From contig JAFWOB010000065.1 in assembly GCA_017510065.1 (NCBI GenBank), forward strand, positions 57,454 through 121,453: a stretch of DNA of 64,000 nucleotides. Direction: 5' to 3'. Shown in pieces: positions 52,734 through 62,084 of this stretch. Position 1 is the stretch's first letter. Each line of letters begins with the position of its first letter. Origin of the DNA: Parasporobacterium sp. (GTDB taxonomy: Bacteria; Bacillota; Clostridia; Lachnospirales; Lachnospiraceae). Made by a program: the position numbers and the translations under genes. The notes beneath the pieces are model-generated. The model did no database searches. It was not told the origin of the DNA and saw nothing but the letters and a program-made list of their open reading frames with translations.

Positions 52734-52817
52734 GCGGAAGTGTCGGAACTGGCAGACGAGCAAGACTAAGGATCTTGTGCGAGCAATCGCGTGTGGGTTC
52801 AAGTCCCATCTTCCGCA
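52734..52817 (+). tRNA. tRNA-Leu (AAG anticodon), integration target
   Basis: 84 bases with acceptor GCGGAAG/CTTCCGC, a long variable arm, and anticodon loop CTAAGGA (anticodon AAG). Its last 21 bases plus one more are repeated exactly at 61206-61227, so it serves as the attachment site of the following element. The tRNA itself is intact; its original terminator appears to be the hairpin at 61230. Confidence 0.93.
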
Positions 52818-52818
52818 T
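52797..52818 (+). other. attL: tRNA 3' end core
   Basis: 22 bases beginning GTTCAAGTCCCATC, identical to 61206-61227. An imperfect inverted repeat (TCGATCATATAT / ATATATGATTCGA) follows at 52820-52855 and may be a recombinase arm site. Confidence 0.85.
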
Positions 52819-52876
52819 TCGATCATATATTACGGCTAGATATATGATTCGAGCTTTTAGCATGAAATTCATGAAA

Positions 52877-52900
52877 ATACCACTGGGCGACCAGTGGTAT
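52877..52900 (-). terminator. Terminator for the minus-strand regulator
   Basis: ATACCACTGG-GCGA-CCAGTGGTAT, a perfect 10-bp stem, followed on the minus strand by TTTC, 15 bases past the stop at 52915. Confidence 0.8.
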
Positions 52901-52914
52901 CTCTCCGTTTATGA

Positions 52915-53364
52915 TTATTTTCTGTATTCTTCTATCTTCAGAAGATCCGTCATATAATCAAAAATTTTTTTTATTCCGGTCTCATTCAGATCCCCGATCT
53001 TTTCCTTTATCGCGCTGAGTGCCATCCCTGCATCGTCCTTGGTGTCTGCCACCGGCAGGTCATATAGGTTCTCAGCCCCTGCCAGCATCTCCATGGGCGA
53101 AGTATGGAAGAACTCACTGATGCTGAGCAGGTCCTGTACGGTCAGGTACGGGCATTTCTTGAATCTCCTGGTGACTTCAGCTGGATCCTCATCATCTTTG
53201 AGGTTCGCGAGCAGCTCGATGTTGGAACCCCAGACATTCGCGGCGACTGTTTCTTCATTCTTCCCGCAGGCGATCGCCACTTTCCGCCTGGTGGCTCCAT
53301 ACTGCTTCCGGAGAGTGTAGAGATTGTTGCACAAGAGCTTCTTTGTTTCCAGTTCCCTATCCAT
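52915..53364 (-). CDS. Probable divergent XRE-like regulator of the element
   Basis: The 149-residue protein starts with a helix-turn-helix-like segment (LYTLRKQYGATRRKVAIACG, then EETVAANVWGS) and a second part with TVQDLLSISEFFHTSPMEML, the end pattern of XRE domains. It is the only minus-strand gene of the element and faces the 53637 gene across a 272-base spacer, the usual layout of a phage- or ICE-type repressor. AAAGGAAAG precedes ATG 53364. Assignment as repressor is inference. Confidence 0.6.
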   Translation of the reverse strand: MDRELETKKLLCNNLYTLRKQYGATRRKVAIACGKNEETVAANVWGSNIELLANLKDDEDPAEVTRRFKKCPYLTVQDLLSISEFFHTSPMEMLAGAENLYDLPVADTKDDAGMALSAIKEKIGDLNETGIKKIFDYMTDLLKIEEYRK

Positions 53365-53561
53365 CTGATCTTCTTTCCTTTCTGGTGTTTTTTCCGCTTA
53401 GTGGACTCAAAATACGCTTTTTAGCATTCTATCATAAAAAAATTTTTCAGTCGACATAAAAATTACTATAAACACTATAATTTTAAAGAAAAACAGATAA
53501 AAAACGAAAAAATAATCATCCTGTTTATTCTTTATTATTAATTGACGAGTGTCCGGTACCA

Positions 53562-53591
53562 TTGACGGGGATTTATATGACATGCTAATAT
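53562..53591 (+). promoter_or_regulatory. Candidate rightward promoter of the element
   Basis: TTGACG (53562-53567), 18 bases, TAATAT (53586-53591). A second ATTGACG lies 20 bases upstream (53541), a possible direct-repeat operator. Confidence 0.45.
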
Positions 53592-53636
53592 GCGGTTCAT
53601 CAAGAAGAAAACAGTGCTCCGGAAGGGATACAGAAG

Positions 53637-54377
53637 ATGGAACGGGAAGCATTTATCAATGACCTGATAAAGAAAAAGGGGTGTCTGAAGCAGTCCCTGG
53701 CGGCTGCGATCGGCCAGTCCAAGCAGTCTTTCTCGGCAAAACTGTCCGGCACGAACAGGTTCTTCCGGGAAGAAGTGGAGATACTGGCAAAGATCCTCGG
53801 CGATGAGGTGTTTGAGGCATTCCCGGAATACCGGGACCGCAGATATGACATCTGTTCCGGGCTCAGGATGGTCCGCGTGGCATTCCTGAGGCAGAGCATG
53901 GAAGAACTTGCAGCTTCCCTTGGGATCACCAAGCAGGCATGGCAGAAGTATGAAACGGACAGGATCCCCCCGGCTTCCTATATCGCAGACCTGGCGGTCC
54001 ATTACCATATCCCCTGCAGCGTCCTCCTGAACGTGGATGAGGAGAGCTGGAAACACTGTACCGGGGAAAACCTCGTCCTGAAAAAACTGGAAGAAGATCC
54101 CTACTACCTGGAGTATGCAAAGAGCGGAATGCCTTACGGACTGCATGAGGACAAGAAGCTTGCTCTCAGGTGGGTCTCCTGCCTGATCAACGACCTTGAT
54201 CACTACGGCCTGCAGGAACTGCTGGAATGCATCCTTGAGGTCTACCGGAAAAACCATACGTTCATGCAGTCGCGCGTCTATAAGAGGCTGACAGAAACAT
54301 CAGAGCAGAAGATGGTCAGCAAACCCCGTATGGCACATCTTCTAAAAGAGGAAGAGAATAACGGGCTACAGGAGTAA
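53637..54377 (+). CDS. Regulator with two tandem XRE-type domains
   Basis: The 246-residue protein contains two helix-turn-helix modules: residues ~8-55 (LKQSLAAAIGQSKQSFSAKL) and ~76-125 (MEELAASLGITKQAWQKYET). The remainder is helical. Two DNA-reading heads in one chain could bind adjacent half-sites, for example the iteron-like repeats of the element. It is followed after six bases by the SAF-like membrane protein gene, suggesting one transcript through 56221. Confidence 0.7.
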   Translation: MEREAFINDLIKKKGCLKQSLAAAIGQSKQSFSAKLSGTNRFFREEVEILAKILGDEVFEAFPEYRDRRYDICSGLRMVRVAFLRQSMEELAASLGITKQAWQKYETDRIPPASYIADLAVHYHIPCSVLLNVDEESWKHCTGENLVLKKLEEDPYYLEYAKSGMPYGLHEDKKLALRWVSCLINDLDHYGLQELLECILEVYRKNHTFMQSRVYKRLTETSEQKMVSKPRMAHLLKEEENNGLQE

Positions 54378-54383
54378 ACAAGT

Positions 54384-55412
54384 ATGGAAGAACTGATAAA
54401 AGGCCGAACCGTGATCGCGAAAAAGGGCGTCAGCGATAAAAAAACCGGGATCGTGACAGAAGTCGAGATCCTCTATGGAGGGGAAGAGACCGGATACATG
54501 AGGACCATGGACGGGGAGATCAAAAGGATCCCTGTCCCGGAACAGTACAAGGAGATCCTTCAGGAATACAGGGACAGACTTAGAAAAGAAGAAGCGGCCG
54601 ACCAGATCATGTATGAAGGGGAGGAGGGTACTGATTATGATGTATCGGACAGCCCGGCAATGACTGGAGAAGAACAGGAAACAGGAAGGCAGGAACTAGT
54701 AAAATCATCTTCAGGTGAACTGGCGGTGCGGAAGAAAGAAAAAAGCCTGAAGCACAGCAGAGGAAAGCTCCTGATCCCTGTCATCATCCTGGGGACTGTC
54801 GTCCTGGCCACGTTAGGGCTGCTGCTGGCACAGCTGCTGACCAAGAACAGCCGGGAAGCCCAGCTGCCGGAGGAGACTGTCAGCATCGCCCTGCTGAAAC
54901 ATGACATCCGCGTGGGGGACACCATAACGGCAGCTGAATTTGAACATTCCTTTGTCTCCAGGGAAACTTTCGACATGCTCGGAAGGACCATGTACATCGG
55001 GCCTGACGGCATCAGCAGGGAAGGGACCGTGATGCTGTGGGACGATGTCGGAAAGTACGAGAACTGCATCGCACTGCGTTCCATCGAAGCGGGAAGTGTC
55101 GCCATGGCGGATGATTATTCCCTTTCCAGGAGCAGCCTGACCGGCCAGACGACCCTGCGCCTCGTGGCCGTCATCACTTCAGGCAGGCAGGAGGAGGATG
55201 AGATCGTCTGCGAACTTGGAAGGTATGTGCTGGAAACAGGAACGCTGTCTGATATCCTGAACGCGCAGAACATCAGCGTGCTTGACAAAGCGTCAGGACC
55301 GGAAGGGACTTTGGAAGGCCAGGTTTATGAAGACGTGCCGGAGGAGGTCCTGACGGATACAACAGAAGGAGCGCCGGATCTCTCCGGACAGCCGGAAGAA
55401 ACTGACGGATGA
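54384..55412 (+). CDS. Single-pass membrane protein with SAF-like outer domain
   Basis: The 342-residue protein has a cytoplasmic N-terminal part (a small beta domain with GRTVIAKKGVSDKKTGIV, then acidic linker), one membrane helix at 129-152, and an outer domain from ~165 with IALLKHDIRVGDTITAAEFE, the SAF/CpaB-like beta-clip pattern. A disordered acidic tail follows. SAF domains occur in pilus assembly and sugar-binding proteins, but no pilus genes are present. It overlaps the next gene by four bases (ATGA). Confidence 0.55.
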   Translation: MEELIKGRTVIAKKGVSDKKTGIVTEVEILYGGEETGYMRTMDGEIKRIPVPEQYKEILQEYRDRLRKEEAADQIMYEGEEGTDYDVSDSPAMTGEEQETGRQELVKSSSGELAVRKKEKSLKHSRGKLLIPVIILGTVVLATLGLLLAQLLTKNSREAQLPEETVSIALLKHDIRVGDTITAAEFEHSFVSRETFDMLGRTMYIGPDGISREGTVMLWDDVGKYENCIALRSIEAGSVAMADDYSLSRSSLTGQTTLRLVAVITSGRQEEDEIVCELGRYVLETGTLSDILNAQNISVLDKASGPEGTLEGQVYEDVPEEVLTDTTEGAPDLSGQPEETDG

Positions 55413-55879
55413 CAGGACGAAAGGAAACAGCGTTTGCATATGCAAAGGGAAAGCTCTTTGTCAAGCTGGCCGGATTGTTCCTGTGCTGTATCGCAGCGCT
55501 GGTCGTGATGGCTGCCATCAGGGAGGACATGGGACTGGTCCTGTTCCCCGCCGTGGTCTCTCTGATCCCTGCAGGACTCGCCGTGTACTATGCAGTCCTG
55601 TTCAGGCAGGAAAAGATCTCAGGGACGGTCTGCAGCGTAGTGGAGAAGAAAAAGGATATGGTGGGAGGTTTGCTATCCGGCCTTTCCCTGAACCGCTGCC
55701 GTTATTATCTGGAATTTGAAAACGAGAAAGGAGAAAAAAACGTATTCCATATATCGAGGGGAGGACTGTTCAGTTCCCTGACAGTCGGGCAGAGCTGCCT
55801 GGTACTCCATAAGAACTGCCGGGAACTGTCGTCAGACAATTTCATCGAGTGCGTTGCCGTGGACACAGAGGATGCTTAA
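55409..55879 (+). CDS. Two-helix membrane protein with DUF3592-like domain
   Basis: The 156-residue protein has membrane helices at ~17-36 and 41-61 and a soluble beta domain after ~65 (GTVCSVVEKKKD, RYYLEFENEKGEK, LTVGQSCLVLHK), resembling DUF3592-type proteins. It starts inside the upstream stop, so the two membrane proteins are co-translated and probably interact. Function unknown. Confidence 0.6.
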   Translation: MTGRKETAFAYAKGKLFVKLAGLFLCCIAALVVMAAIREDMGLVLFPAVVSLIPAGLAVYYAVLFRQEKISGTVCSVVEKKKDMVGGLLSGLSLNRCRYYLEFENEKGEKNVFHISRGGLFSSLTVGQSCLVLHKNCRELSSDNFIECVAVDTEDA

Positions 55880-55933
55880 TAGCCGGAGCGGAACCTGTGG
55901 GCGGAGCAAATAAAAACAAAAAGGAGAGAAAAA

Positions 55934-56221
55934 ATGAATTTCATGGTACAAAAAAGCGGTGAACTAAAAACGTTCATCAACAACAACTATGGCCAGATCT
56001 GTGGTCTGGTCAATTATCTGATCAGCTGGCATGGCCCCTGGGAGAAAGAGGACATGCTGGTTGAGTCTGTGGAGGATGCCGTACTGAAGGCAACCAACAT
56101 CATTCTGCTTCTCAGGACCGGGACAGCCGGATTCATTTGCAGTGATATGACAGAGGAAGAAGTGCGCGACCTGATCATCTCCGAAGTGCATTATGTCGAA
56201 GATGACGAGGAGGAAGAATAG
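55934..56221 (+). CDS. Small acidic protein, unknown function
   Basis: The 95-residue protein has no recognised family; it is helical in the first part (ELKTFINNNYGQICGLVNYL) and ends in an Asp/Glu run. AAGGAG precedes ATG 55934. It is the last gene before the terminator at 56236 and the origin region. Confidence 0.6.
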   Translation: MNFMVQKSGELKTFINNNYGQICGLVNYLISWHGPWEKEDMLVESVEDAVLKATNIILLLRTGTAGFICSDMTEEEVRDLIISEVHYVEDDEEEE

Positions 56222-56235
56222 CAGAATAAAAATGG

Positions 56236-56276
56236 ACCATACAGAAGAAAAAACACCTCTGTATGGTTCGGTTCTT
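56236..56276 (+). terminator. Terminator before the origin
   Basis: ACCATACAGA (56236-56245) pairs with TCTGTATGGT (56258-56267), then TCGGTTCTTTTTCCC. It isolates the origin from upstream transcription. Confidence 0.8.
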
Positions 56277-56289
56277 TTTCCCTTTTCCC

Positions 56290-56678
56290 TTATTCCTTAT
56301 ATAAATAACATTATTAATACATTATTAAAAAACTTATTAGCGCGCGTGCGTGCGCGCGCGATATTTAGGAAGAAAAATTTGAAAATGAGTTTTCCGTATA
56401 CTAGAAAAAATGGACACATATACTAGAAATTCTGGACATTTATACTAGAAATCGTGGACATTTGAAAAAAACGTATACTAGAAATTCTGGACATTTTTCG
56501 GGGAAAAATCTGAAGCGCGTATACTAGAAATTCTGGAAATTCCGGGAGGGAATGGCAGGAACACCATATACTAGAAATCCTGGACAGATCATTTCTGCCT
56601 TTTCCTCCAATCTGCAGAACAGAAATGCCTTATCTGCGGGCTTTATTAAAGTCTGCATACTAGAAATCACGGACACTT
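56290..56678 (+). repeat. Candidate replication origin: AT-rich block, alternating GC tract, seven iterons
   Basis: An AT-rich stretch (56296-56339) is followed by 21 bases of strict purine-pyrimidine alternation (56340-56360). Iterons of consensus ATACTAGAAATTCTGGACA start at 56398, 56420, 56442, 56475, 56521 (GGAAA variant), 56568 and 56657; the first gaps are 22, 22 and 33, whole helical turns. The last copy ends four bases before the rep ATG. This is the classical theta-plasmid layout with autoregulating iterons. Confidence 0.85.
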
Positions 56679-57623
56679 ATGAAACGAGAAGAAGACCTGT
56701 TCAGCCAGGATGATTATTTTGAGAATTCAAAGGAAAAAGAAGCAGCCGACCGGAATAACACCCTTGTGAACAAGATGGTTGCGATCGGGAAGCCGTTTTT
56801 CCGGAGCGAGTTCATGCCGTCACCGGATCAGTCCGGCAGCATGCTGTCACTGCGGATCACGGATATGAAACTGCTGTATATGGCCCTTACGGAGATAAAG
56901 TGGTCGCAGGCAGGGAATAAATTTGATGTCCGGCTGCGGAAAAGCGATATCTGTGACGTGCTGGATATCCCGAAGGACCACAGGGCTGCGAACCGCATCA
57001 GGAATGCATATGACCACCTTGCCAGGATGTCGTACCTCAAGATGGATATCAATGACCGGAAAGACTACAAAAACGGTTTCCTGGTTTTCGGTAGCGACAG
57101 CGAAGAACGTGGCGAGATCATCAATGTGCATCTGAACGGGGTGCAGTTCGGTACTTTGTTTGAAAACCTTACCGGGAACAAGGATTTCTTCGTTATGTGG
57201 GTGAATGACATTTACCGCTTTACCAGTATCTACAGCTACCTTCTTTATGAAGACCTGAGGATCCACTCCGACTCGAGGAGGAAGAACAGCCGGATCTACA
57301 CGGACGAAGAGCTGAAAAGGGTGTTACGGATCCCTACTTCCGGGAAAGGCTCCTATATGCATATGCTGAAGGGGAAACCCCATTTTAACCGGAACCTGTT
57401 TGAAAAATACATCCTGGAACCGGTAACGCAGGAAATCGCTGACTGCAGGATGGTCTGCCTCTCTCCGGTGGGAAGGAAAAGGCAGGATGGGGACAGGATC
57501 CTGCCGCAGAAGGATAATCTGGTCTTTTATCGGAAAGTGAAACAGAACGGAAAGATTGCAGGCTATGAATTCCAATACAGCATTAAGACAGGAAGGACAA
57601 AAATGTTGCCAGACGAAGAATAA
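56679..57623 (+). CDS. Replication initiator protein (Rep_3/RepB superfamily)
   Basis: The 314-residue protein has two winged-helix regions typical of Rep_3 initiators: SLRITDMKLLYMALTEIKW with later IRNAYDHLARMSYLKM, and RFTSIYSYLLYEDLRIHSDS with the FEKYILEPVTQEIADC end. It should bind the seven upstream iterons and open the AT-rich block. The ATG has no SD and lies four bases from the last iteron, so binding of Rep could block its own translation or transcription. This makes the element a replicon. Confidence 0.85.
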   Translation: MKREEDLFSQDDYFENSKEKEAADRNNTLVNKMVAIGKPFFRSEFMPSPDQSGSMLSLRITDMKLLYMALTEIKWSQAGNKFDVRLRKSDICDVLDIPKDHRAANRIRNAYDHLARMSYLKMDINDRKDYKNGFLVFGSDSEERGEIINVHLNGVQFGTLFENLTGNKDFFVMWVNDIYRFTSIYSYLLYEDLRIHSDSRRKNSRIYTDEELKRVLRIPTSGKGSYMHMLKGKPHFNRNLFEKYILEPVTQEIADCRMVCLSPVGRKRQDGDRILPQKDNLVFYRKVKQNGKIAGYEFQYSIKTGRTKMLPDEE

Positions 57624-57649
57624 AAACACGGATGACAAGGAGGGAAACA

Positions 57650-58045
57650 ATGAGTGAGAATTATTGCAAAGTAAAAGGGGATACCATACTGGTCAAGGAT
57701 TTCCGCAAGATGGAATATGTGAATGAAGATGATATCAGACTTCTGGAACTGATCATTGATAAGATTGACTGGGAAGCAAAAGATCCTTTCCATATGACCC
57801 TGCAGATGATGGAACTCTGTGACCTGCTGAATGTTGGCTTAGATGCGCCGCATCGGGCTATGGCAGCCCTTGAACACCTATTCGGCGTTGCCTTTTTTGA
57901 AGTAAGGGAACCATCTGGAAATGTGCATGGCGGGATGCTCGTCCCAAACTGGAACTGGAATAAAGAGTATACAGAAGTGTATCTTCACCTAAATGCTGAT
58001 CTGTTGGGGGCTATGTTCAAGCTGTGGTCCTTGAGAACGGCATGA
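57650..58045 (+). CDS. Truncated Rep-like paralogue (first winged helix only)
   Basis: From ATG 57650 (AAGGAGG upstream) the 131-residue product aligns with residues ~60-165 of the adjacent Rep: DIRLLELIIDKIDWEA against DMKLLYMALTEIKW, MALEHLFGVAFFEVRE against the DHLARMSYLKMD region, and LHLNADLLGAMF against VHLNGVQFGTLF. It stops before the second domain. Such fragments can act as inhibitors of iteron replication by forming mixed dimers. That role is inference. Confidence 0.65.
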   Translation: MSENYCKVKGDTILVKDFRKMEYVNEDDIRLLELIIDKIDWEAKDPFHMTLQMMELCDLLNVGLDAPHRAMAALEHLFGVAFFEVREPSGNVHGGMLVPNWNWNKEYTEVYLHLNADLLGAMFKLWSLRTA

Positions 58046-58122
58046 CCTTACAAGAAGAAAACCGATAAAAACAGGAAGAACTGCAGGAGCATTGTAAAGA
58101 AACTTTAAATTGAGATAAATAA

Positions 58123-58244
58123 TAGTTTAATATTAAACTAAAAATAGAGAATAATAAAGTTGACACTTGCCTTCCAAAAGTTTATTATCTTTAATATCGA
58201 AACAAAATAGTTTATATATAAACCAAAATATATCGATATTAAAG
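58123..58244 (+). promoter_or_regulatory. AbiE promoter with nested palindromes
   Basis: TTGACA (58160-58165), 17 bases, TATTAT (58183-58188). Three palindromic blocks surround it: TAGTTTAATATTAAACTA (58123-58140), GTTTATATATAAAC (58210-58223), and CTTTAATATCGA (58189-58200) matched in reverse at 58233-58244. AbiEi antitoxins are known to repress their own promoter through inverted repeats, which these resemble. Confidence 0.7.
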
Positions 58245-58263
58245 AAAACTGAGAGGCAAAAGA

Positions 58264-59031
58264 ATGGATCTATACTATGAGGTATTAAAAAGGCCGGTTT
58301 TTACAATCAACGATATCTGTGGCTTTTACAACAATATCGAAAGTGCAAGGAGTGCAGTAAAACGGCTTCTGAGTAAGGGAAGGATAATACATATCAGGAA
58401 TAACCTTTATACAGCGATTAGCGGAGAAACAGGAGCTCCGGTTGCGAACCGGTTCCAGATAGCAAGCGCTGTCACGGACACTTCCTATGTAACCCATCAT
58501 ACCGCGATGGAATATTATGGGATAACAGACCAGGTATTCTACGATGTATATGTCGGATCAGAGACAGCCTTTCAAAGCTTTGTGTTTGATGGATATACAT
58601 ACCGTTATGTAAAATGCAGGTTCCCTGAGGGGATAGAGGAAATAGGATACAGCGGGGGAGTCCGCGTTACAGACAGGGAGCGGACCGTCCTTGACAGTAT
58701 CAAAGACATGGATAAGATTGCCGGAGCAGAGGAGGTTATTGATAATCTCGGCGCAATGAAACTTGTAAAAGAGGACAGGATCATACAGTATCTTGCGCTC
58801 TATAACAATCAGTTTCTTTACCAAAAGACCGGTTATATCCTGTCACGGATACAGAATAAGCTTGGCCTTTCAGATTCCTTTTTTGAACTGTGCAGGGATA
58901 AGTCGGGGAAGAGTACACGGTACCTGTCCAGCGACCATAAAAACGGAGTATATGATTCAGAGTGGAAACTGGTAATACCGGAGATATTGTTCCAATCTAA
59001 GAATGGGGGAGTAACAGATGCCAACATATAA
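58264..59031 (+). CDS. abiEi: AbiEi-type antitoxin/transcriptional regulator
   Basis: The 255-residue protein has an N-terminal winged-helix (ARSAVKRLLSKGRIIHIRNNLY), the AbiEi core (ATDTSYVTHHTAMEYYG-like VTDTSYVTHHTAMEYYGI) and a VRVTDRERTVLDSIKDMDK segment. AbiEi neutralises AbiEii and autoregulates. Its stop overlaps the toxin gene by 14 bases. GAGAGGCAAA precedes the ATG. Confidence 0.9.
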   Translation: MDLYYEVLKRPVFTINDICGFYNNIESARSAVKRLLSKGRIIHIRNNLYTAISGETGAPVANRFQIASAVTDTSYVTHHTAMEYYGITDQVFYDVYVGSETAFQSFVFDGYTYRYVKCRFPEGIEEIGYSGGVRVTDRERTVLDSIKDMDKIAGAEEVIDNLGAMKLVKEDRIIQYLALYNNQFLYQKTGYILSRIQNKLGLSDSFFELCRDKSGKSTRYLSSDHKNGVYDSEWKLVIPEILFQSKNGGVTDANI

Positions 59032-59977
59032 CAAAGCAAATCTCGCCATGGCGGCTTCTCAATATGGATTCCAGAGGGATACGTTTGAAAAGGTCCTGCG
59101 TTTAAAGAAGGTTCTCGAATACTGTCAGGAAAAAAAGCTGCTGAAGGAGCATCTTGTCCTGAAAGGCGGTACAGCCATCAACCTGACTGTTTTTGATCTT
59201 CCAAGGCTTTCTGTTGATATTGATATGGATTATATCCCGAATGACAGCCGGGACGAAATGCTGGCTGTGAGGGAAGAAATCTCAAAAACAATAAAGGACT
59301 ATATGGAAAGTGAGGGCTATCTTCTGACAGACCGTTCCCGATTCAGCCACAGCCTGGATTCTTTCATCTTCCGATATCAAAATGCGGGCGGCAACAGGGA
59401 TGTTTTGAAGATTGAACTGAATTATTCTTTACGTGCACATGTGCTTGATCCGGTGTACAGGGAAATCATAACAGATATGTTTGGCGGGCAGCCTCTTCTA
59501 TACATGGTCGACCCGATCGAAATCTTTGCGGCGAAGGCCAATGCATTGATCAGCAGGGCAGCCGCAAGGGATCTGTATGATTTCAATAATCTCATCCTTA
59601 ATGGGAAGTTTGAAGAGAAATCTGAACGTGATCTGCTCAGAAAGACGATCATCTTTTATGCGACGATCTCCTCAAAAACGTTAAACCGCTTTTTTGAAAC
59701 TGATGCGATTGATAACCTGACGATCACAAAGATCCGCCGCGACCTGTTCCCGGTTCTCAGAAACCAGGAGATACGGGCGCATTTTGACCTTGATCTGTAT
59801 AAAAACAGAGCAAAAGAATACCTGAAGGAGCTGATGACAGTATCACAGGGGGAATCAGATTATTTGGAGTGCTTCATGCGGGGAGAATACCGTCCGGATC
59901 TGCTCTTTGATGACAGGACAATAGTAGAACGGATCGCGAAGCATCCGATGGCTATCTGGAAATGTAACAATATGTAA
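59018..59977 (+). CDS. abiEii: AbiEii/AbiGii toxin, nucleotidyltransferase fold
   Basis: The 319-residue protein has the NTase motif KGGTA at 49-53 and D67/D69 (SVDIDMD), followed by KIELNYS and AAKANALISRAAARDLYD. AbiEii toxins transfer nucleotides, commonly to tRNA acceptor stems, and stop growth during phage infection. All core residues look intact, so the pair is likely active and both stabilises and defends the element. 14-base overlap with abiEi. Confidence 0.92.
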   Translation: MPTYNKANLAMAASQYGFQRDTFEKVLRLKKVLEYCQEKKLLKEHLVLKGGTAINLTVFDLPRLSVDIDMDYIPNDSRDEMLAVREEISKTIKDYMESEGYLLTDRSRFSHSLDSFIFRYQNAGGNRDVLKIELNYSLRAHVLDPVYREIITDMFGGQPLLYMVDPIEIFAAKANALISRAAARDLYDFNNLILNGKFEEKSERDLLRKTIIFYATISSKTLNRFFETDAIDNLTITKIRRDLFPVLRNQEIRAHFDLDLYKNRAKEYLKELMTVSQGESDYLECFMRGEYRPDLLFDDRTIVERIAKHPMAIWKCNNM

Positions 59978-59995
59978 ATCAGGCGGGAGTACACT

Positions 59996-60424
59996 ATGGA
60001 TAAAGCGGAGAGATGTAAAGTGCTGACAAGTTCATATAACAGCGGACAGTTGATCAAAATCGGAAAGCAGATCAAAGGCAGGAGAAAAGAGCTCCGGATG
60101 AGCAGCCAACAGCTGGCTGATCAGCTTGGAATCTCCAAAAGGCAGGTCTTCCGGATCGAGAACGGATCCTCCGATGCGAATATAAGGACCGTCCTTAAAA
60201 TTGCAGATGCCCTGAACTGCAATCCTTCCTATCTCCTGTGTGATGATACCAGAATGACACCGGAAGAAATGATCAGGTCTGCGATCATGAGGGCGGATGT
60301 AAAAGAACTGATCCATCTGTATAACACATATTCGGAAATCACGCGGTTGATCGGAGACCATCTGACCAACCTGATGAAACACCAGAATAGTAAGCAGGTA
60401 AGTAATCATGATGATTGTGACTGA
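59996..60424 (+). CDS. XRE-family transcriptional regulator
   Basis: The 142-residue protein has a clear helix-turn-helix: IKGRRKELRMSSQQLADQL, then GISKRQVFRIENGSSDANIR and ALNCNPSYLLC. A C-terminal helical part follows. It starts 18 bases after the toxin gene and overlaps the next gene by 17 bases. Probably regulates the 3' part of the element. Confidence 0.8.
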   Translation: MDKAERCKVLTSSYNSGQLIKIGKQIKGRRKELRMSSQQLADQLGISKRQVFRIENGSSDANIRTVLKIADALNCNPSYLLCDDTRMTPEEMIRSAIMRADVKELIHLYNTYSEITRLIGDHLTNLMKHQNSKQVSNHDDCD

Positions 60425-60662
60425 TTCAAATAATATTGTCTTTTCCGAAGGGATCATAGAAATCTACAAGGACAAATACAGGTATGGAACCTATTGCCTG
60501 AAGGCAACCGTTTACGGAGGAGGTACACGGAACCTGCTCACCAATCTTTCCAGAAAGGATGCAGACCTCGCGGAGAAAGCAATTGTTGAAGCGTTTGCCC
60601 AGGGAAAGCCTGTGATGAATTTTTCCAAGGATTTACAGGAAGCCCTTTCTAATGAAGGATAG
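60408..60662 (+). CDS. Small protein, unknown function
   Basis: The 84-residue product (start ATG 60408 or 60411) contains IIEIYKDKYRYGTYCLKATV and a helical end. No family recognised. It overlaps the XRE gene by 17 bases, consistent with translational coupling, which supports it as real. Confidence 0.55.
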   Translation: MMIVTDSNNIVFSEGIIEIYKDKYRYGTYCLKATVYGGGTRNLLTNLSRKDADLAEKAIVEAFAQGKPVMNFSKDLQEALSNEG

Positions 60663-60685
60663 AACATTATTGTACCGTCATAACT

Positions 60686-60994
60686 ATGTGGGCATCACTC
60701 GTTAGTAAAAAAGACTATGTCGATTTTTTCAGAGATAATACTTTTACATTTACCGGAAAGCTGAACCTGATGGACAGGGCAGAGGCATTCCGATTTGTAA
60801 AACTTTGTGGGGGAGGCTGTTCAAAGAATCTGACGAAACGCACGAATGTTCTGGTCGTTGGCAGCTTCCGTCATAAAGAGTGTTATCGGAACAAATATCA
60901 TGCTGCACTAAAATACAACGAACAGGGACAGAATATAAAAATCATTAGTGAAGATTTATTCTACCAGATGTTATTAATGTTTTTTCTGGTATGA
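60686..60994 (+). CDS. Small BRCT-domain protein
   Basis: The 102-residue protein is essentially one BRCT domain: TFTFTGKLNLMDRAEAFRFV, then CGGGCSKNLTKRTNVLVVGS. Bacterial BRCT domains occur in DNA ligase and in phage/plasmid proteins that recognise DNA ends or phosphorylated partners. The reading frame ends just after a T6 run; one base shift there would add a zinc-ribbon tail (next entry). Confidence 0.75.
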   Translation: MWASLVSKKDYVDFFRDNTFTFTGKLNLMDRAEAFRFVKLCGGGCSKNLTKRTNVLVVGSFRHKECYRNKYHAALKYNEQGQNIKIISEDLFYQMLLMFFLV

Positions 60995-61109
60995 AAGGTG
61001 TGAACATGAATGGGTAACAGCCATTTGGCCAAGTGGATCGGAAGTAGTAGAGTGCAGCAAATGTGGAGTCACGCTCTCCATGTGGTTATATAACGGATAT
61101 ACGGAATAA
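60979..61109 (+). pseudogene. Zinc-ribbon tail in shifted frame after the BRCT gene
   Basis: In the +1 frame after the T6 run (60980-60985), codons read FWYERCEHEW, then VECSKCGVTL and stop at 61107-61109: two CxxxH/CxxC-type pairs of a small zinc ribbon. No ATG, GTG or TTG start lies in this frame. It is either the true C-terminus of the BRCT protein separated by a one-base insertion, or reached by programmed frameshifting. Confidence 0.45.
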
Positions 61110-61205
61110 AGATTTGGCAGATACAGGATGATAACAAAAAAGGTTCCCTGGGTGGTTGATGCCACGAAACCTCCTTACTTTTCAAGTATTGTTGATTTTC
61201 CAACT

Positions 61206-61227
61206 GTTCAAGTCCCATCTTCCGCAT
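61206..61227 (+). other. attR: copy of the tRNA-Leu 3' end
   Basis: 22 bases identical to 52797-52818; the sequence upstream shows no tRNA body, so this is only the attachment core. Confidence 0.85.
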
Positions 61228-61229
61228 AA

Positions 61230-61260
61230 AAAAGGATTCTTCGTAAGGAGAATCCTTTTT
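61230..61260 (+). terminator. Probable original tRNA-Leu terminator
   Basis: AAAAGGATTCT (61230-61240) pairs with AGAATCCTTTT (61249-61259), then T-rich sequence. It lies three bases past attR, where the tRNA terminator would be before integration. Confidence 0.75.
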
Positions 61261-61287
61261 CTTTTGCTGAAAGGTCTTTTCGAGCGA

Positions 61288-61315
61288 GCAAGATTTTTAA
61301 CCGCAAAAATCTTGC
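61288..61315. other. Perfect hairpin
   Basis: GCAAGATTTTT-AACCGC-AAAAATCTTGC, an 11-bp stem 29 bases past the DUF6273 stop; may help end that minus-strand gene. Confidence 0.45.
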
Positions 61316-61343
61316 AAAGTGAGGGGATTTGGGATTTGAGGAT

Positions 61344-62084
61344 TCAGGATTGCAGATTGACCCATAAAGCAGGCCGGACAGTACCTATGCCGACAACTAC
61401 AAAGTAGCCAAGGGTATTGATGATGCCTCCTTTGAGGACACGTGCCGCGCGGTAACTATAGTAGCCGGGGGAGCGCAGCCACCACCAGCAGGTGCTTTCG
61501 CTATTTACTTTATTTGAGTTAGATTGAATAACTCCCCGGGATATGGCATATGCGGTGGGTACACATATTCTGGATTCGGTCGTACTCAAATATTGCTTCG
61601 CCTCCCGGATACTCAACAGGAAGACCTGGTCCTTCGTATCGTTACCTGGATCTGTGTCGTAAACCGGATTTTCATCTGCGCTGACAGTTACTGTTGGAAT
61701 AATGCTTATCTCGTCTTCCGTAAACGCTGTATTCAAAAATGTACTGTTCAACCAAGCCCGGAGAGAACAGGTTTCCCAGGTCACGTCAATGTGTTCTTCA
61801 TTGTACGGCTGGCAGTCCAGGGCATATCGGCTTAATAACAGCGCCTTACCCTCCTGTATGTCCAGCACCTCCCATTCAATGGGTTCCTGGCCATTGTCCA
61901 GATTGTTGTCCTGTTCATAACTGCCGAAGGTTACATAATCGCCGATTTCTGCATTTTGGAACACATACCAGCCGTTTCCAGTTTGGGAAACATTCTCTCC
62001 TTCCGACCTGCCCGCAACCATAACAGGTACACTGACAAGGATACAAATAAGTAAAGCCATAATGATAAATATTTCCTTTTTCAT
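61344..62084 (-). CDS. Secreted DUF6273-family protein
   Basis: From ATG 62084 (AGGAGG upstream) the 246-residue product has a signal peptide (MKKEIFIIMALLICILVSVP, cleavage near VMVAG) and a DUF6273 domain: IGDYVTFGSYEQD, PIEWEVLDIQEGKALLLSRY, SLRAWLNSTFLNTAFT and a final WWWLRSPGYYS block. This Clostridial domain is related to FGE/lectin-like folds but its role is unknown. The frame could extend 12 codons upstream, but that part lacks an SD. Single-gene unit just outside attR. Confidence 0.85.
   Translation of the reverse strand: MKKEIFIIMALLICILVSVPVMVAGRSEGENVSQTGNGWYVFQNAEIGDYVTFGSYEQDNNLDNGQEPIEWEVLDIQEGKALLLSRYALDCQPYNEEHIDVTWETCSLRAWLNSTFLNTAFTEDEISIIPTVTVSADENPVYDTDPGNDTKDQVFLLSIREAKQYLSTTESRICVPTAYAISRGVIQSNSNKVNSESTCWWWLRSPGYYSYRAARVLKGGIINTLGYFVVVGIGTVRPALWVNLQS

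What the first reader, a model, noticed from the sequence alone, without database searches (positions are those of the whole stretch)
52797..61227. tRNA-Leu-integrated plasmid-like element without an integrase
A 22-base direct repeat of the tRNA-Leu 3' end brackets 8.4 kb that carries an iteron/Rep_3 replicon and an AbiE pair, with all regulators outside normal host functions. Reading every frame, I find no integrase, excisionase, relaxase or phage structural gene. A replicating satellite that uses a tRNA site but lacks its own recombinase would be an unusual mobile class, moved in trans by a helper or relying on homologous recombination at the tRNA.
Basis: partly seen in the sequence, partly recalled or inferred. 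Interest (0 to 1): 0.8.

Follow-up and report, generated by a model that had tools for sequence, protein, structure and literature searches.

The report
Integrase-less tRNA-Leu plasmid-like island
An 8.4-kb plasmid-like piece of DNA sits precisely in a bacterial tRNA gene although it carries no enzyme for inserting itself, most likely because it lost that enzyme, which makes it a fairly ordinary stranded mobile element.

Summary
An exact 22-bp copy of the tRNA-Leu(AAG) 3' end lies at 61206-61227, 8,409 bp from the copy in the gene (52797-52818); the window has no other site within 3 mismatches and shuffles give none. The insertion is real: what follows the far copy is homologous to what directly follows the tRNA in congener G001 (0 of 2,000 mononucleotide shuffles score as high), while the element's left end is not. 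The interval encodes an iteron replicon with a modest Rep_3 match, an AbiE pair and regulators, and no detectable tyrosine integrase. The 22-mer is an ordinary tyrosine-integrase core: 4 of 8 viral contigs with it (two of the four near-identical) have an integrase beside it, and G013 has a truncated integrase at this tRNA. No helper is visible: no third exact core in the own assembly. Integrated elements that keep att sites but lost recombinase and transfer genes are a described, common class (cis-mobilizable elements, CIMEs). Best reading: a CIME-like, probably decayed integrative plasmid; movement in trans is possible but untested.

The parts
52734..52817 (+). tRNA-Leu(AAG), intact; insertion target
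   Evidence: ARAGORN; Rfam tRNA 49.2 bits
52797..52818 (+). tRNA-side copy of the 22-bp core
61206..61227 (+). far copy of the 22-bp core, 22/22 identical
61228..61314 (+). displaced native downstream flank of the tRNA, beginning with a terminator-like hairpin; homologous to the DNA directly after tRNA-Leu in G001
52915..53364 (-). 149-aa ORF, no Pfam or NCBIfam match, one PHROG match at E 0.088 only (looks like a regulator by eye)
53637..54377 (+). 246-aa helix-turn-helix protein (HTH_31, E 3.4e-7)
54384..55412 (+). 342-aa protein, weak CpaB-like match (E 0.0066, far below cut-off)
55409..55879 (+). 156-aa ORF, probably membrane protein (by eye), no family over cut-off
55934..56221 (+). 95-aa ORF, no family
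56394..56678 (+). 7 iterons directly before rep
   Evidence: family D1
56679..57623 (+). probable Rep_3 replication initiator, 314 aa
   Evidence: Rep3_N 26.2 bits (cut-off 22.4), Rep3_C 16.7 bits (cut-off 21.1); not listed in genome-wide PF01051 searches
57632..58045 (+). 137-aa ORF with only a weak Rep3_N-like stretch, possibly a shortened second initiator
   Evidence: E 0.0012, below cut-off
58185..58248 (.). inverted repeat before abiEi, possible operator (inference)
   Evidence: I2, 78% complementary
58264..59031 (+). AbiEi antitoxin
59018..59977 (+). AbiEii nucleotidyltransferase toxin
59996..60424 (+). helix-turn-helix regulator
60408..60662 (+). 84-aa ORF, no Pfam or PHROG family
60686..60994 (+). 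stand-alone BRCT domain protein, like parts of phage exonucleases and ligases

Best explanation
This is an integrative plasmid-type element (iteron replicon with a probable Rep_3 initiator, and an AbiE toxin-antitoxin pair) that was placed in the 3' end of tRNA-Leu(AAG) by a tyrosine integrase, restoring the tRNA and leaving a 22-bp core at each end. The integrase is not aboard now, most likely because the gene was lost after or during integration (decay), so the element is CIME-like: stuck, or able to leave only if an integrase of the same specificity enters the cell or another element integrates beside it. Shown: ends, target, displaced flank, gene content, no detectable integrase. Inferred: that a tyrosine integrase did it, that the gene was lost rather than never present, that Rep would replicate the excised circle, and that AbiE helps keep the element.
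For: Exact cores with no chance expectation. The far flank is the tRNA's native downstream DNA: with the core excluded it scores 41 against G001, mononucleotide-shuffle maximum 19, 0 of 2,000; the element's left end scores 8, with 1,699 of 2,000 shuffles as good. The 22-mer is used by integrases: 4 of 8 viral contigs that hold it have an integrase match next to it (L073, L076, L078, L080); L073 and L076 are 98.7% identical over 3.3 kb, so this is 3 independent cases among 7. In congener G013 a truncated integrase frame (121 aa) lies within 0.25 kb downstream of the same tRNA. In G001 a second core copy lies about 0.6 kb after the tRNA with no integrase match between. Elsewhere in the genus, G008 has a lone core of this type that differs from the end of its own tRNA-Leu(AAG), and G002 has a Rep_3 gene about 2.7 kb from an integrase beside tRNA-Leu(TAG). 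CIMEs are defined as decayed ICEs or IMEs that kept att sites, and 215 were reported beside 88 ICEs and 66 IMEs at one tRNA-Lys gene in 303 genomes (PMC7563491, passages).
Against: No intact relative with an integrase was found, so loss is not demonstrated: Rep has only weak relatives (G153 E 4.8e-9, G507 E 5.8e-4), and none in plasmids, phages, IMG/VR or GTDB contig scans (the contig scans reach close relatives only). There is no integrase remnant at either end. Of 28 Rep_3 loci of the sampled family and genus, only 4 have an integrase-profile match in the 4.7-19.9 kb held, so absence near Rep_3 is usual and not by itself a sign of loss. The Rep_3 assignment itself is modest.
Confidence: 0.62

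Rival explanations
1. A true satellite: the element normally has no integrase and is excised and inserted in trans by an integrase of a co-resident phage or integrative element of the same specificity, replicating as a circle in between.
For: Both cores are perfect although the far one is outside a tRNA and so presumably unconstrained; main genes are open; the core is one that integrases on viral contigs use.
Against: No third exact core copy in the own genome, so no co-resident element of the same core is visible; no family of related integrase-less elements was found.
Confidence: 0.17
2. Accretion product: an integrase-bearing element once lay between tRNA and this segment (or the segment is the far part of a larger island) and left by itself, leaving the integrase-less part behind.
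For: Tandem CIME structures are described (PMC7563491, PMC5704250, passages); the site holds leftovers in G001 and G013.
Against: Only two cores remain in the window and no third is seen with up to 3 mismatches.
Confidence: 0.12
3. A free plasmid recombined into the chromosome by homology over the 22 bp.
For: The element has a plasmid-type replicon.
Against: 22 bp is short for homologous recombination (general knowledge), and the duplication falls on the tRNA 3' end that integrase-bearing viral contigs use.
Confidence: 0.04
4. The far repeat is not an att site but the 3' arm of a tRNA-tail-copying hairpin that follows many tRNA genes in this genus.
For: Such hairpins carry a 19-20 nt copy of the tRNA 3' end.
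Against: At tRNA-Leu those copies read GGAAGTCC, the window copy reads GTTCAAGTCC; no exact inverted arm lies at 60901-61400; the model finds none in the window at E 0.1; and the displaced flank needs an insertion.
Confidence: 0.02

Closest known systems
CIMEs (cis-mobilizable elements), e.g. in Streptococcus
   Same: Bounded by att-type repeats at a gene or tRNA 3' end; no recombination or transfer genes; sizes of 1.2-13 kb reported for classical CIMEs (PMC7563491, passages)
   Different: Descent from an ICE or IME is not shown here; it stands alone next to the tRNA and keeps a plasmid-type replicon
ssrA genomic islands without integration module in Dehalococcoides (15 reported, PMC3146451, passages)
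   Same: Island bounded by a 20-bp repeat of an RNA gene's 3' end, no integrase
   Different: There, islands with full module sit in tandem at the same gene; the integrase there is a serine recombinase; reductase genes as cargo
IMEs with a Rep_3 initiator (SGI1, BcenGI2, as listed in PMC5704250, passages)
   Same: Integrated element with theta-type Rep_3 initiator
   Different: As IMEs they encode their own integration and mobilization functions
Helper-dependent 'hitcher' elements, incl. integron cassette arrays without integrase (CALINs) (PMC11389934, passages)
   Same: Depends on a recombinase encoded elsewhere, if mobile at all
   Different: Different recombination system; dependence is not shown here
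AbiE-carrying record MT836237.1 (L171)
   Same: AbiEi and AbiEii 41% and 45% identical
   Different: Has a relaxase-like ORF (by eye); none of the other 10 window proteins matched it; unannotated 11.7-kb scaffold

Membership tests
CIME | Flanked by att sites (direct repeats incl. end of target gene) | tested here: met
CIME | No recombination genes | tested here: met
   tyrosine recombinases; others only by family scans of the 12 main ORFs (and 10 of 12 in 51)
CIME | No conjugation or mobilization genes | tested here: met
   no relaxase or T4SS family over cut-off in the ORFs scanned; one far-below-cut-off MobT match of an HTH part (E 0.041); an oriT alone cannot be excluded
CIME | Derives from an ICE or IME by deletion | tested here: inconclusive
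   no intact relative found
CIME | Moves by accretion with an incoming element | not testable with these tools
   needs a culture
Rep_3 iteron replicon | Rep_3 initiator with iterons beside it | tested here: met
   Rep3_N over its cut-off, Rep3_C below; 7 iterons; genome-wide PF01051 searches did not list it
Rep_3 iteron replicon | Replicates autonomously | not testable with these tools
   no DnaA box (consensus recalled) with up to 1 mismatch at 55901-56800
AbiE type IV toxin-antitoxin | Overlapping AbiEi and AbiEii genes | tested here: met
Integrase-less satellite moved in trans | Co-resident helper with the same core | tested here: not met
   no third exact core in the own assembly; assembly is 90% complete

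The most novel reading that the evidence does not exclude
A lineage of replicating tRNA-integrated plasmids that as a rule carry no recombinase, borrow the phage-type integrase that shares their 22-bp tRNA-Leu core, and secure themselves with AbiE between visits of a helper.
Probability: 0.12. Interest if true: 0.68.

Novelty: new member of a known kind. Interest (0 to 1): 0.3.

Why it matters
It is a cleanly bounded example, with the displaced flank as proof, of an integrated replicon without recombinase, and its 22-bp core points to the integrases that could move it. If it does move in trans, it would be a simple model of a replicating hitch-hiker; if not, it is one more decayed island.

Tried and rejected
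Relatives: Rep in 98 relatives (only itself), 397 family genomes (G153 besides itself) and 344 order genomes (G507 besides itself), and in GTDB contigs, IMG/VR, plasmids and phages (none; the contig scans see close relatives only); the 342-aa protein (none; one weak match, G195 E 4.7e-4); the 246-aa regulator (none); AbiEii (none, 149 plasmid records, all under 60% identity, one record). A motif (GTATTNTTGA) seemed shared by the far ends in the window, G001 and G008, but a family-wide scan found only the window in 397 genomes, and a viral scan nothing (of the genus, sampled only G000 and G006), so I do not rely on it. G153, the source of the nearest Rep relative, has a remote integrase-profile match (E 2.2e-5) within 1 kb of its Rep ORF; it may be a plasmid resolution gene (guess), so it says little. 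The first integrase profile had 4 seeds and was replaced by one from 33 segments. Own-genome integrases were looked at as helpers: C107 and C149 are related contigs (86% identical over 3.8 kb) whose integrase is cut by the contig end, C103 is a 3-kb contig, C53 is near tRNA-Cys, C47 is a fragment near tRNA-Leu(CAG); none has the core within 2 mismatches. A solved-structure search for Rep gave nothing. Papers: 6 searches; four papers seen as passages only. I make no claim that anything is absent from print.
Full report
What was claimed and what is there. Both copies are exact (52797-52818 and 61206-61227), and 100 shuffled windows give no match even at 3 mismatches. The tRNA, with anticodon AAG, is intact. 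The window is part of contig C14 of an unnamed 3.47-Mb, 242-contig assembly of 90% completeness.

Is it an insertion? Yes. In congener G001 the tRNA is followed directly by a terminator-like hairpin and a second hairpin that match the window's DNA after the far copy, not the DNA after its tRNA. With the core left out, the window's right flank scores 41 against G001 (mononucleotide shuffles: mean 9.1, maximum 19, 0 of 2,000 as good), and the element's left end scores 8 (1,699 of 2,000 shuffles as good). Joining the two flanks restores the G001 order. So the native downstream region was pushed 8,409 bp away. G001 is not a pristine site: it has another core copy about 0.6 kb further on, without an integrase match between.

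What it carries. Left to right: a 149-aa ORF, an HTH protein, three ORFs without solid family, 7 iterons, a probable Rep_3 initiator, a shorter Rep3_N-like ORF, AbiEi and AbiEii, an HTH regulator, an 84-aa ORF and a stand-alone BRCT protein. The Rep_3 match is modest: the N-terminal domain is over its cut-off, the C-terminal one is not, the genome-wide searches with PF01051 did not list the own genome, and no solved structure matches by sequence; the iterons directly before the gene support the assignment. No integrase: the Pfam family gives 6 matches in the own genome, none on this contig, and an integrase profile made from 33 congener and own segments finds nothing at E 1e-3 in the window and at best E 0.53 in the interval with filters off. 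No DnaA box with up to one mismatch was seen at 55901-56800. GC content does not set the interval apart.

Who could have put it there. The core is an ordinary target of tyrosine integrases. Eight IMG/VR contigs hold the exact 22-mer, two of them within an intact tRNA-Leu(AAG). Four of the 8 have an integrase-profile match beside the core in the DNA held (L073, L076, L078, L080); L073 and L076 are near-duplicates, which makes 3 of 7. In congener G013 a truncated integrase frame lies within 0.25 kb of the same tRNA. G008 holds a lone core of this type, near a decayed integrase and a tRNA-Ser, although its own tRNA-Leu(AAG) ends differently. In G002 a Rep_3 gene lies about 2.7 kb from an integrase beside tRNA-Leu(TAG). 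Rep_3 elements with an integrase therefore appear to exist in the genus, and this tRNA collects integrative leftovers.

Is a helper present? In the own assembly no third exact core was found; the only other place within 2 mismatches is inside tRNA-Leu(CAA). No element of the same specificity is therefore visible, with the limit of a 90% complete assembly.

How it most likely works. A tyrosine integrase inserted a circular, plasmid-type element at the tRNA 3' end. The integrase gene is gone, and the element now rides in the chromosome, perhaps held by AbiE. It could leave if a matching integrase arrives. Loss is preferred to a never-had-it satellite because att-bounded islands without integrase are common in the literature (PMC7563491, PMC3146451, PMC5704250; passages), because the same tRNA shows leftovers in G001 and G013, and because no family of such satellites turned up. 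Against it, no ancestor with an integrase and no remnant was found. Of 28 Rep_3 loci of the sampled family and genus (all that searches listed), only 4 had an integrase match in the 4.7-19.9 kb held (L068, L138, L151, L152; L068 weak, L151 about 9 kb from its Rep), so lack of an integrase near Rep_3 is usual; 25 of the 28 show no tRNA in the DNA held and may be free plasmids.

Verdict. Observation confirmed, insertion demonstrated, interpretation as an unusual class not supported. It works like a CIME; membership is not fully shown, since descent from an ICE or IME stayed open and mobilization was not testable.

Noticed in passing
L013, L015, L016, L017, L018, L022, L025, L030, L034, L067 (downstream of tRNA genes in congeners; not in the window): Hairpin RNAs of about 92 nt follow tRNA terminators and copy the cognate tRNA: the closing stem is the T-arm region in inverted and direct orientation, and in the clear cases the tail repeats the tRNA 3' end, changing with the tRNA (Leu-AAG, Leu-TAG, Leu-CAA, Ser). 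A covariance model built from 6 gave 12 matches, those 6 included, in 10 of 48 sources at E 0.1; 16 of 26 pairs change on both sides, covariation 0.375 against 0.159 shuffled with 0 of 500 shuffles as high, though 34 of 500 reach the number of pair types, and the alignment was fitted to the structure. No convincing Rfam match in 4 sources tried. Some are in tandem (L022, L025). Could be a new structured RNA or mini-element.
   Followed up: partly
tRNA-Leu(AAG) loci of the genus (L012-L022, L024): Hairpin units and integrative leftovers look mutually exclusive at this tRNA: G000, G001 and G013 have an insertion or leftovers and no hairpin match, while G002, G004, G005, G007, G009 and G011 have the hairpin. 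G006 keeps only an arm, G008 has neither, G010's contig ends at the tRNA; G003 and G012 gave no good match to this tRNA.
   Followed up: partly
L060 11029-11723 (G001:C64): A 0.6-kb stretch after tRNA-Leu bounded by the same 22-mer, with a 92-aa ORF and no integrase match; like a very small CIME.
   Followed up: partly
L138 4859-10977 (G002:C79): Element beside tRNA-Leu(TAG) with integrase, a helicase-like ORF (by eye), Rep_3 and a regulator; the integrase lies on the 5' side of the tRNA.
   Followed up: no
L065 and L066 (G000:C107, C149): Two related contigs (86% identical over 3.8 kb) with a ParB-like protein, a PemK-like protein, a multi-HTH protein and an integrase cut by the contig end (names by eye): perhaps two copies of one element.
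   Followed up: partly
window 60981-61106: Open stretch with CxxC-like cysteines after the BRCT gene, without a usual start codon, possibly a remnant of a zinc-ribbon protein.
   Followed up: no
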